From Zasmidium citrigriseum (lineage: Eukaryota; Ascomycota; Dothideomycetes; Mycosphaerellales; Mycosphaerellaceae): 64,000 bases of DNA. Of the stretch, positions 22,011-31,692 are shown piece by piece. The notes under the pieces were generated by a model, which had not been told where the DNA came from, searched no databases, and saw only the letters and a list, made by a program, of their open reading frames with translations. Made by a program: the position numbers and the translations under genes. Each line of letters opens with the position of its first letter. Within the stretch, counting starts at the first letter, position 1. The stretch covers positions 806,001 through 870,000 of the forward strand of contig NHNW01000010.1 in the NCBI GenBank assembly GCA_002786025.1. Reading direction: 5' to 3'.

Positions 22011-23039
22011 ATGACAAATGGGCGACAACAGCAGAAGGCAAGCACAATTTGCATGCAAGAGATGCCTGTTATGGTGCATCAGAGCCGTGACGATCATCGT
22101 CAAGAAGCTCGTCATTTCGCCCGGTGGTAAGTACATGTGAAGCTGACCAGCAATTTACAGCTCAGAACTTGATACTTAAGAAAGATTCCTCCTCTCAAGA
22201 TCGTCGTCGTGTCTTCCGTGCAGGGCACGAGCAGCTGCCATACAAAGTTAAAAGAGAAGTCAAAGGCTGTCGGTTTCGAGACAATTCCCTCGGTACAGCC
22301 AGATGCACCGTCAAGACTTCAAGCAGTACAACATGTTCTGTCTTCGCAAGGTCGCAAAAGCTGTCTTCTCCAACACGTAAGCCACGGTTTCATTCTCTTT
22401 AATGCACCTATTTGCTGACATTGTACACAGTGTCAGCATTGGAGCGACGGCTGCATCTGCCTGGGCGGTTCGAGAGGGGTGGTAGAACCTGGGCGAGGCG
22501 GCTTTTGCGAAGCGGCTGGATATCGCCAAACGCAAGAACGAAGTACCGGGCATTCCGTTCGGGTCTGAGGGCGTGAGAGGTCGTCGGTCTCCCATCCCCA
22601 CGTACTCTTCCAGGATTCCTGCGATCTGGTGAAGGATGTCAGGCATACAAGCGGCGTTAACGCATCTTTGATACTGTTCGCTTGAGAACTTCCACAGCTC
22701 CTAGAACATCCCCCCTTCGCTCGTAAATAGCTTAGCAGGGATGCTGCATGTGTGCTCTGTACTATTTAGCCGTTGGATATCGCCCAGTCTGATATGTCGA
22801 TCCTGTCGCCGTCGCCTCACATTCCAATGGTGAACGCCCCGATCTGACTCCATATCCTCCCCTAGAGCACCCATCGACCTCTGCACTTCGTTCAAAACCA
22901 TTTATATCGATTTCTACAGCCTCGCCGGCGTTCGGAGACACTTCGGCGACTCCAGTTGCGCTTACATAAACGCTACCCATCAAGTCTTGGCCAATCATCG
23001 CCACCGGAGCTCAGCCTCCGCTATGCGTGTTCTACGCAG
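22011..23039. other. Intergenic, possible gene fragment on minus strand
   Basis: Minus-strand ORF 22646-22311 (111 codons, starting MPDILHQIAGILEEYVG) is the most protein-like reading and may be a fragment of a larger gene damaged beside the RIP block. I do not recognise its family. Nothing else is supported before the tRNA at 23040. Confidence 0.35.
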
Positions 23040-23218
23040 TCCCACGTGGCACAATTGGTTAGCGCGTGAGACTTTTAATACTGAGAGATCTCAAGGTTGG
23101 GAGTTCGAGTGAGTACAGTCTCTCGATCCCGAGATATCGATGTCGTCGTCGATATCGATGGATCATTCTTGCGCCAGCGACATCTGCTAACAGCGTCTCC
23201 CAGGCCTCCCCGTGGGAG
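23040..23218 (+). tRNA. tRNA-Lys (UUU), interrupted by two introns
   Basis: The 5' acceptor strand TCCCACG (23040-23046) pairs perfectly over 7 bp with CGTGGGA (23211-23217), and G at 23218 is the discriminator. The D-arm (GCACAATTGGTTAGCGC, one A-C mismatch) contains the A box. The anticodon stem TGAGA/TCTCA encloses CTTTTA, anticodon TTT, with a 10-nt intron at the usual 37/38 site (23078-23087). T-stem strands GGGAG (23099-23103) and CTCCC (23206-23210) pair perfectly but are separated by a 95-nt insert in the T-loop. Removing it leaves loop TTCGAGC. With the insert the B box is split, so transcription and function are uncertain; otherwise every stem is intact, unlike a typical decayed tRNA. 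Confidence 0.72.
23109..23203 (+). other. Spliceosomal-type intron or introner-like insert in tRNA T-loop
   Basis: 95-nt insert with GTGAGT donor, TGCTAAC branch point (23185-23191) and CCCAG acceptor 12 nt later, all matching the mRNA introns of neighbouring genes. It contains a perfect 8-bp hairpin, GATATCGA (23133-23140) with TCGATATC (23149-23156), and a 5-bp hairpin TCTCG/CGAGA just before it. Strongly folded, mobile introns of this size (introner-like elements) are known from Dothideomycetes. Boundaries 23110-23204 are equally possible, since the ends are degenerate by one base. Confidence 0.6.
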
Positions 23219-23267: not shown

Positions 23268-23274
23268 TTTTTTT
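23268..23274 (+). terminator. T7 tract, candidate RNA polymerase III terminator
   Basis: Run of seven T residues 50 bp after the tRNA discriminator base, the first T tract of four or more downstream on the sense strand. This fits a Pol III terminator with a longer than usual 3' trailer. Confidence 0.5.
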
Positions 23275-30072: not shown

Positions 30073-31692
30073 ATGGTTCAAAAGCGAGGAGCTCTGGGGA
30101 ACTCTTTCCGTTCGATCATGATTGCCACGGCCATCAGCCTGGCTGGATTGCTCTATGGACTGGACACTGGCAAGTCCATGGACCCAATTCTGTGAAGTTC
30201 TCCACTAATCTTCTTGTCAAGGGATCATCGCCACTACCATCGCCCATGACAGCTTCAAGAAATACATGTACGGCTCGCTGGACACAAATACGGCGATCCA
30301 AGGGGCGATCGTCTCTGGATACTACGCAGGCAGCGCCGTCGGTTCTGCAGCGGCTTCATACTGCATGGACCGCATCAGTCGACGATGGAGTCTGCTTCTG
30401 GGCTCTGTCGTCAGCGTGATCGGTGCTATCCTCCAGGCGACAGCGCAGAATCCAGCCATGATGATTGTTGGCCGTGCCTTCTCCGGGTTCAGTACGGGTT
30501 GTGTATATCCAGTTGCCCCAGTCTACCTCTCTGAAATTTCGCCTCCTGAGAATCGTGCCTTCCTTGTCGGCTTAAAGGGTCTCTGGAACACGTTCGGCTT
30601 CTTTCTTGCTGGCTGGATAGGATACGCCGGTGCCTTTGCTGTTGGGGACATCCAGTGGCGAGTTCCACTTGCCACCCAGGCTCCGCCAGCAGCACTTCTC
30701 GCAATCTTAACTTTCTTCCTGCCATACTCACCAAGATGGCTTACGATGAAGGAACGATACGAAGAGGCTGAGGCCACCATGCGCTACCTTCATGCCCATC
30801 GATCGCAAGAATTCATTGCCACCGAGTTGACTGAGATGCAAGCGCAAATCAGGCTGGAGAAGCAACACAAGACCAAGTCAAACTTTCTTCGCCTCTTCAA
30901 GCCACAGTACATCCGCAGGACGCTGCTTGGCACTCTCATTGTCAACATGTGCAAGCTCAGCGGTTCAAATATCATCCAAAACTACCAGGACTTGATGTAT
31001 TCTAACCTGGGCTACGAAGGCAAAGAGGCCTTACTCATCACAGCAATCTATGGGTTCATGGCACTAGTCGGACAGCTGTTCTCTATCTTTACTGTTGCAG
31101 ACCATTGGCCACGCCGGAGGACCGTCATCACTGGATGGCTCACCCTAGCTGGTTGTCTGACCATTCTCGCTGTTCTATCTGCCCTCTATGGCGAGACTGG
31201 GAATCCGAATGCTGCTGGACAGCGTGCAGGAATTGCCTTTATCTTTTTGTTCGCCCTGTCATACAGCGTCTTCTTCAACTCCGCTGTTTGGGTCATTGTC
31301 GCCGAGATCTTCCCTCTTGAACTCAGAGCTGTCGGCGTTGGGTGGTCCACCTTCAGCCAATACCTCACTGCTATCTGGCTGAGCTACGCTGCGAGCTATG
31401 CATTTGACAACATCACTTGGAAGTTCTACGTAAGTCTCAACAGTGCTCCATACGACTGCGAGGAACTATGCTGACTGTGTTGCACAAGTTTGTCTTTATT
31501 GGCACCAATCTCTTCTCGGCCATTGTCTATTACTTTTGGTTTCCGGAGACTAATCAACTTACTCTGGAGCAGATTGCTTCGGCTTTTGGAGATGCCGTTG
31601 CTGATCCTGTCGCTCGGGACTTGGGCAAGACGCTTAAGGACGATGAGAGTGCTGAGCACGTAGAAACAACGCAGATGCAAGAGAAGGCTTGA
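30073..31692 (+). CDS. MFS sugar-porter family transporter
   Basis: Three exons: 30073-30169, 30222-31429 and 31489-31692, giving 502 aa. Intron 1 uses a GC donor (GCAAGT) with a CTAAT branch; only this junction gives GLDTGIIATT, the usual TM1 end of sugar porters. Family signatures are DRISRRWSLL (loop 2-3), GRAFSGFSTGCVYPVAPVYLSEISPP, LPYSPRWL (PESPRWL variant) before the central loop, SGSNIIQNYQDLMY in TM7, VAEIFPLELRAVGVGW, and PETNQLTLEQI after TM12. About 12 membrane helices; plasma-membrane uptake of a sugar or similar polyol by proton symport is inferred. Substrate unknown. Confidence 0.92.

What the first reader, a model, noticed from the sequence alone, without database searches (positions are those of the whole stretch)
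23040..23218. tRNA-Lys gene with an mRNA-type intron inside the T-loop
Seen: acceptor strands (7/7 bp) and T-stem strands (5/5 bp) of a tRNA-Lys(UUU) are perfect but separated by 95 nt inserted in the T-loop. The insert has GTGAGT, TGCTAAC and CCCAG at intron spacing and a strong internal hairpin. Known: eukaryotic nuclear tRNA introns sit almost only at position 37/38 and are cut by the tRNA endonuclease; this gene also has one there (10 nt). Known: hairpin-rich introner-like elements multiply in Dothideomycete genomes. Inference: an introner-like intron has jumped into a Pol III gene, splitting its B box, and either kills the gene or requires a cross-over of spliceosomal and tRNA processing.
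Basis: partly seen in the sequence, partly recalled or inferred. Interest (0 to 1): 0.9.

Follow-up and report, generated by a model that had tools for sequence, protein, structure and literature searches.

The report
tRNA genes split by spliceosomal introns
In this mould, close to Zasmidium, many tRNA genes, including the only initiator-tRNA gene found, are interrupted by introns of the kind normally cut out of messenger RNA, so making working tRNAs appears to depend on the spliceosome.

Summary
Window 23040-23218 holds a tRNA-Lys(UUU) gene with a 10-nt canonical intron (37/38) and a 95-nt GT-AG intron (23109-23203) between T-loop positions 58 and 59; removing it restores a full cloverleaf. 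Its D/anticodon arm has no other match in the 44.4-Mb assembly.

Splice-aware searching of 131 loci of the same genome (nearest named protein relative: Zasmidium cellare) rebuilt 36 nuclear tRNA genes; 22 carry one to three spliceosomal-type introns, 36 in all. Real motifs succeeded in 21 of 117 loci, two decoy motif sets in 0 of 117 each. The introns lie in acceptor, D, anticodon, variable and T arms; 32 of 36 are 48-59 nt. The only initiator-Met gene found has two. All 22 have a T5+ run downstream. All three U6 copies found carry a GTAAGT..AG intron; 25 strong 5S matches are uninterrupted.

Best explanation: Pol III pre-tRNAs spliced by the U2 spliceosome, then by the tRNA endonuclease. A recent introner jump is not supported: no second copy, no intron family. 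RNA evidence is missing and the census is incomplete. My paper searches found no report of spliceosomal introns in nuclear tRNA genes.

The parts
23040..23108 (+). tRNA-Lys(UUU) exon part 1, positions 1-58, including the 10-nt canonical intron
23047..23058 (+). A box TGGCACAATTGG, intact
   Evidence: read; A-box consensus recalled
23078..23087 (+). canonical 10-nt tRNA intron between 37 and 38 (tRNA-endonuclease type)
23109..23203 (+). 95-nt spliceosomal-type intron between T-loop positions 58 and 59 (GTGAGT ... CAG)
23125..23164 (+). hairpin inside the intron
   Evidence: not exceptional against shuffles
23185..23191 (+). branch-site sequence TGCTAAC, ending 12 nt before the AG end
23204..23218 (+). 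tRNA-Lys exon part 2: positions 59-73
23268..23274 (+). T7 run, Pol III terminator candidate 49 nt after the gene
22963..22969 (+). weak TATA-like sequence TACATAA 77 nt upstream
   Evidence: loose pattern without control
30170..30221 (+). comparison: probable 52-nt GC-AG mRNA intron in a sugar-transporter gene, CTAAT branch site, ends CAAG
   Evidence: keeps the frame, but the Z. cellare protein lacks the following 32 residues and does not confirm it
31430..31488 (+). comparison: 59-nt mRNA intron GTAAGT..CTGAC..AAG in the same gene
   Evidence: spliced protein matches the Z. cellare protein across the junction

Best explanation
The insert is a genuine U2-type spliceosomal intron in a working, apparently single-copy nuclear tRNA-Lys(UUU) gene, and the fungus carries such introns in most of the tRNA genes I could rebuild (22 of 36). 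Likely route: Pol III transcribes each gene, using an intact A or B box and probably an upstream TATA-like element (inferred), and stops at the downstream T run. The nuclear spliceosome removes the GT-AG introns, which rebuilds acceptor, D or T arms (inferred from splice signals and restored pairing). RNase P and RNase Z then trim the ends and the tRNA endonuclease removes the 37/38 intron where there is one (inferred from established tRNA biology, recalled). Shown here: gene anatomy, splice signals, restored cloverleafs, T runs, uniqueness by search, and a parallel intron in all three U6 copies found. Not shown: the RNA.
For: 22 rebuilt genes with 36 introns; real motifs 21 of 117 loci, decoy motifs 0 of 117 and 0 of 117; ARAGORN with single introns: 22 locus-strands against 3 and 5 for decoys, of which I do not count 4 of the 22 (L068, L087, L113, L127) and left L100 unresolved. 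For all 36 introns the placements compatible with the tRNA structure (median 7 of 2601) include a GT..AG, 3.3 expected by chance, with the caveat that the set was found using GT..AG. Lengths 48-95 nt (45-100 allowed), 32 of 36 between 48 and 59; nearest branch-site motif 8-14 nt before the end although 4-26 was allowed; 11 of 36 start GTAAGT. T5+ run within 120 nt downstream in 22 of 22 split and 14 of 14 unsplit genes, against 6 of 101 distant same-strand pieces. Initiator-Met and Lys-UUU arms each matched once. U6: 3 of 3 copies found carry a 56-58-nt intron GTAAGT..AG at GGCC|CCTGCACTAAGG. Gln-CTG paralogues: exons 68 of 72 identical with a compensatory T-stem change, same intron position, introns 51 of 81 columns.
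Against: No transcript data. GT..G, branch-site motif and AG were search conditions, so their mere presence in all 36 is by selection. Two of the 22 genes (Val-AAC, Leu-CAG) also have an unspliced cloverleaf only one point worse if the insert is read as something else, and ARAGORN reads six unspliced split genes as some tRNA (L050, L056, L057, L058, L089, L115). Three genes have 6 of 7 acceptor pairs (Met-CAT, Ala-TGC, Gly-CCC), and Arg-CCT and Arg-TCG use several G-U pairs (by eye). Five 3' ends are AAG, though the two mRNA introns also end AAG. TATA-like sequence is in 16 of 22 split genes by a loose pattern without control. The census is incomplete, and a Lys-UUU or initiator gene cut inside the searched arm would be missed.
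Confidence: 0.9

Rival explanations
1. The introns are removed by the tRNA splicing endonuclease at non-canonical positions, as in red algae and archaea, and GT-AG is incidental.
For: Non-canonical tRNA introns cut by the endonuclease are described for C. merolae and archaea (passages of PMC4090602, PMC3978253).
Against: Only 1 of 36 introns has the four-pair central helix of a bulge-helix-bulge motif, 0.83 expected by shuffling (strict form only, motif geometry partly recalled). Decoy motifs rebuild no tRNA (0 of 117 twice).
Confidence: 0.04
2. The split genes are pseudogenes or an assembly oddity, and intact copies supply the cell.
For: Single-genome data; census incomplete; intact Glu-TTC exists beside a split Glu-TTC.
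Against: Paired stems kept across introns in 22 genes, compensatory T-stem change between Gln-CTG paralogues, T5+ runs in 22 of 22, no second initiator or Lys-UUU arm found.
Confidence: 0.03
3. The tRNAs are released from longer Pol II transcripts spliced as mRNA. This shares the spliceosome step with the best explanation.
For: Spliceosomal splicing is normally coupled to Pol II (recalled); the A box is cut in 7 and the B box in 4 of 22 split genes.
Against: T5+ runs within 120 nt downstream in 22 of 22 split genes; U6, a Pol III RNA in known fungi, carries the same kind of intron; no split gene has both boxes cut (0 of 22).
Confidence: 0.1
4. The Lys insert is a recently transposed introner-like element. 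This concerns its origin and does not exclude the best explanation.
For: It has a hairpin and is the longest of the 36; introner-like elements are reported in related Dothideomycetes (PMC4457414, search listing with the start of its abstract and one passage).
Against: No second copy in the genome search (that search skips very common words); best similarity to any other fetched sequence is 14 nt.
Confidence: 0.05

Closest known systems
mRNA-type intron of the U6 snRNA gene in fission yeast
   Same: Spliceosomal intron in a Pol III gene; in this genome all three U6 copies found have one; in fission yeast it lies near the catalytic nucleotides (passages of PMC10484740)
   Different: Host here is tRNA, in at least 22 genes, up to three introns per gene, in many positions
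[quoted passage not shown]
   Same: Many tRNA genes interrupted, several introns per gene, ectopic positions (34 of 43 disrupted in C. merolae, PMC3978253 passage)
   Different: Those are attributed to the tRNA endonuclease and bulge-helix-bulge motifs; here the introns have spliceosomal signals and no excess of that motif
Canonical eukaryotic tRNA introns at 37/38
   Same: Also present in 27 of the 36 rebuilt genes, the window gene included
   Different: Fixed position, no GT/branch/AG requirement
mRNA-type introns in fungal nuclear rRNA genes
   Same: Spliceosomal-type introns in a non-coding RNA gene; known to me here only as a title in the reference list of PMC11782384 and from recall
   Different: Host is rRNA (Pol I), not tRNA
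Introner-like elements of Dothideomycetes
   Same: Spliceosomal introns, related fungi
   Different: No repeat family seen here; host genes are tRNAs

Membership tests
U2-type spliceosomal intron | 5' GT splice site and 3' AG at the exact exon junctions | tested here: met
   window: 1 of the 3 structure-compatible placements is GT..AG; all 36 likewise, with the caveat that GT..G and AG were search conditions
U2-type spliceosomal intron | branch-site sequence at a short, fixed distance from AG | tested here: met
   presence was a search condition; the spacing was not: nearest CTRAY/TTAAY motif 8-14 nt before the end in 36 of 36, 4-26 allowed
U2-type spliceosomal intron | lariat excision by the spliceosome | not testable with these tools
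   needs RNA
Nuclear tRNA gene | cloverleaf with acceptor and T-stem after splicing | tested here: met
Nuclear tRNA gene | Pol III terminator-like T run | tested here: met
   T7 at 23268; T5+ in 22 of 22 split genes
Nuclear tRNA gene | internal A and B boxes (usual, not strictly defining) | tested here: inconclusive
   window gene: A box intact, B box interrupted after GTTCGA; over the 22, A cut in 7, B cut in 4, both in 0
Introner-like element | many near-identical copies in the genome | tested here: not met
   one match only
Endonuclease-type (BHB) tRNA intron | bulge-helix-bulge at the junctions | tested here: not met
   the window insert lacks it; 1 of 36 against 0.83 expected, strict form

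The most novel reading that the evidence does not exclude
A fungal lineage in which the spliceosome has become an essential tRNA-maturation enzyme: most tRNA genes, including the sole initiator tRNA, are split by one to three ordinary mRNA-type introns in Pol III transcripts, so translation of every protein depends on spliceosomal splicing of tRNA, and U6 itself must be spliced as well.
Probability: 0.82. Interest if true: 0.97.

Novelty: new variant of a known kind. Interest (0 to 1): 0.94.

Why it matters
Eukaryotic tRNA introns normally sit at one place and are cut by a dedicated endonuclease; the review passages I read name only nucleomorphs and a red alga as exceptions. Here the mRNA machinery appears to have taken over a step of tRNA making across a genome. 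That gives a natural system for asking whether spliceosomal splicing needs Pol II, how Pol III copes with broken internal promoters, how introns enter short structured genes, and how tRNA quality control tolerates precursors whose acceptor stems do not yet exist. Practically, ARAGORN misses such genes or gives them another anticodon (the two Gln-CTG genes read unspliced as Leu and Gly), so tRNA sets of related fungi may be wrongly annotated.

Tried and rejected
ARAGORN and Rfam on the window: nothing. Search for other copies of the insert: none. Introner family by all-against-all comparison of 36 + 3 introns: only matches of 9-18 nt, many at the 5' end or the branch site. Bulge-helix-bulge test: at chance. 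Hairpin: not exceptional. SRP RNA in the genome: one match of 21 bases at E 1.78, nothing learned. B-box patterns GGTTCGANCCC and GGTTCAANTCC: no excess over the reversed control (52 against 58, 63 against 79), unlike GGTTCGANTCC (133 against 79). Of those 133 only 100 were listed; I fetched the surroundings of 81 in 74 regions, leaving out 12 that looked like pairs of one repeat and 7 already seen. Of the 52 GGTTCGANCCC hits 30 came with loci. Papers on spliceosomal introns in tRNA genes: searches listed none that reports them, judged from titles, starts of abstracts and, for some, passages; the library lacks preprints and most subscription papers. Dropped before the count of 36: 3 of 39 solved loci (L098, L111, L113), judged by eye to belong to a tRNA-like repeat family. 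Unresolved and not counted: L054, L100 (Cys-like), L055/L096, L028.

Full report
WHAT IS THERE. Window 23040-23218 holds a tRNA-Lys(UUU) gene. ARAGORN and Rfam do not see it. Removing 95 nt at 23109-23203 gives a complete cloverleaf with 7/7 acceptor, 5/5 anticodon-stem and 5/5 T-stem pairs, 3 of 4 D-stem pairs, and a 10-nt intron at the canonical 37/38 site. The removed piece starts GTGAGT, has TGCTAAC ending 12 nt before its end, and ends CCCAG. When its two ends are slid freely, 3 of 2601 placements keep the cloverleaf score, one of them GT..AG. A T7 run starts 49 nt downstream.

WHOSE GENOME. The window lies in a 44.4-Mb assembly of 148 contigs. A sugar transporter in the window is 96% identical (93% of the query covered) to a Zasmidium cellare protein and 88% to one of Pseudocercospora fuligena, so the source is a fungus of or near Mycosphaerellaceae (family name recalled). 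The exact species is not known.

IT IS NOT ALONE. An Rfam tRNA search of the genome (63 of 1309 candidates scored) returned genes with long inserts outside the anticodon loop; the first two seen were Val-CAC (variable loop) and Leu-CAG (variable arm), each with GTAAG, CTAAC and CAG. Reading the flanks of the weak hits showed whole tRNAs cut in two to four pieces. The initiator-Met gene is the clearest: introns after position 6 and in the D loop, 52 and 69 nt, and after removal 7 acceptor, 4 D, 5 anticodon and 5 T-stem pairs. Its anticodon arm occurs once in the genome at up to 3 mismatches.

COUNT. I read the neighbourhoods of B-box matches and of Rfam hits and solved them with a splice-aware cloverleaf search allowing up to three introns. 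Of 131 loci given to the last run, some overlapping, 39 had a distinct solution; 3 were dropped as a tRNA-like repeat family, leaving 36 genes: 22 split, with 36 introns, and 14 without spliceosomal introns. Split: Lys-TTT, Lys-CTT, initiator Met, Met-CAT, Thr-CGT, Arg-TCT, Arg-CCT, Arg-TCG, Ala-TGC, Val-AAC, Val-CAC, Leu-CAG, Leu-CAA, Ser-CGA, Gln-CTG (two), Gln-TTG, Glu-TTC, Pro-CGG, His-GTG, Asp-GTC, Gly-CCC. Unsplit: Gly-TCC, Ser-AGA (two), Ala-AGC (three), Thr-AGT (two), Ser-GCT, Arg-ACG, Glu-TTC, Thr-TGT, Tyr-GTA, Ile-TAT. Amino acids are read from the anticodons. The 22:14 ratio is therefore not a genome-wide fraction.

CONTROLS. With real motifs 21 of 117 loci gave a spliced cloverleaf better than any unspliced one; two decoy motif sets gave 0 of 117 each. 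In two of the 21 (Val-AAC, Leu-CAG) an unspliced reading scored only one point less; in the other 19 no unspliced reading reached the threshold. With ARAGORN as judge and single introns, 22 locus-strands against 3 and 5 for decoys. The decoy hits lie in loci that hold a tRNA or tRNA-like gene anyway; 4 of the 22 real-motif hits (L068, L087, L113, L127) are not in my count either, and L100 is unresolved. The free-boundary test gave a GT..AG among the structure-compatible placements of all 36 introns, 3.3 expected; this set had been found through GT..AG, so the test shows only that structure pins the same ends.

INTRON FEATURES. Lengths 48-95 nt (45-100 allowed), 32 of 36 from 48 to 59. 3' ends CAG 25, TAG 6, AAG 5. 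Nearest branch-site motif 8-14 nt before the end. Two introns of a window mRNA gene look alike (52 and 59 nt, branch sites CTAAT and CTGAC, ends AAG); one of the two starts GC, not GT, and is not confirmed by the Z. cellare protein. Positions of the last exon base before an intron: 4 (five genes), 6, 9 (two), D loop (five), 24, 26, 28 (two), variable arm (three), 50, 51, 52, 53, 54, 58, 62 (two), 63 (two), 64, 68, 69 (four). The A box is cut in 7 and the B box in 4 of 22 genes, both in none; about one would be expected if independent, so this can be chance.

TRANSCRIPTION. A run of five or more T lies within 120 nt downstream of 22 of 22 split and 14 of 14 unsplit genes, against 6 of 101 distant same-strand pieces; 125 of 1440 random pieces of the same regions hold the reverse-strand equivalent. 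None of the 36 genes has such a run inside (no expectation computed). TATA-like sequence lies within 120 nt upstream of 16 of 22 split and 8 of 14 unsplit genes by a loose pattern without control; [quoted passage not shown] All three U6 copies found, none above the Rfam cut-off (probably because the intron breaks them), carry an intron of 56-58 nt at GGCC|CCTGCACTAAGG; fission-yeast U6 has an mRNA-type intron near its catalytic nucleotides (passages of PMC10484740). 25 of 28 listed 5S matches score at least 78 bits and span 119-121 bases, so are uninterrupted (coordinates only).

AGE AND ORIGIN. The Lys insert has no second copy and the introns show no sequence family. Two Gln-CTG genes share an intron after position 28; exons are identical at 68 of 72 positions, with a compensatory T-stem change, introns at 51 of 81 columns against a shuffled mean of 50% (maximum 57%), most visibly alike at the two ends. 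This suggests old rather than freshly inserted introns (inference). How they arrived is open; reverse splicing, as proposed for U6, is one possibility (inference).

MECHANISM. Most likely Pol III precursor, spliceosome first, end trimming next, tRNA endonuclease for the 37/38 intron, which 27 of 36 genes have. Shown: DNA anatomy. Inferred: all RNA steps. The endonuclease alternative lacks bulge-helix-bulge support (1 of 36, 0.83 expected).

AGAINST WHAT IS KNOWN. The tRNA-intron review passages I read describe eukaryotic non-canonical tRNA introns in nucleomorphs and a red alga, with the endonuclease as the presumed enzyme (PMC4090602), and 34 of 43 disrupted tRNA genes in C. merolae (PMC3978253). 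My searches listed no paper that, by title, abstract start or the passages I opened, reports spliceosomal introns in nuclear tRNA genes; preprints and most subscription papers were not searchable. I rate it a new variant rather than categorically new because mRNA-type introns in another Pol III gene (U6) and multiply disrupted tRNA genes are both known.

Mended on re-reading the calls: number of unread hits, which real-motif hits I do not count, the selection caveat on splice signals, the near-equal unspliced readings of two genes, and the status of the A/B boxes.

Noticed in passing
L165, L166, L167 (G000 C117:112082, C72:165035, C59:491109): All three U6 snRNA copies found carry a 56-58-nt mRNA-type intron at the same position with diverged intron sequences, followed by T-rich Pol III terminators.
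   Followed up: yes
L068, L097, L098, L111, L113 (five), L127 (two), L131: A tRNA-like repeat family (most members GCTGATCTGG ... CTGGTTCGACTCC..GGTCAGC, grouped by eye) with odd, long anticodon arms, five copies within 2.2 kb on C78; perhaps a SINE-like or tRNA-like element. Excluded from the counts.
   Followed up: partly
L055 and L096: Two tRNA-like genes GGGGAAGTGGTGTAGCGG.., by eye identical outside a 57-59-nt anticodon-loop insert, with no clear anticodon.
   Followed up: no
L005/L059, L007/L027/L080, L008/L013: Copies of one isoacceptor with similar exons differ in their canonical 37/38 intron (0 or 44, 0/31/30, 17 or 40 nt).
   Followed up: no
window 30170-30221 and 31430-31488: Two mRNA introns of a sugar-transporter gene end in AAG, and one appears to be GC-AG; the annotated Z. 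cellare protein lacks 32 residues after the first.
   Followed up: partly
L028 (G000 C49): AT-rich locus (33% GC) with a tRNA-like gene bearing a 92-95-nt anticodon-loop insert and a second, weaker copy; looks like mutated repeat DNA.
   Followed up: no
L054 and L100: Probable further split tRNAs (anticodon unclear; Cys-GCA-like) that my search did not resolve.
   Followed up: partly
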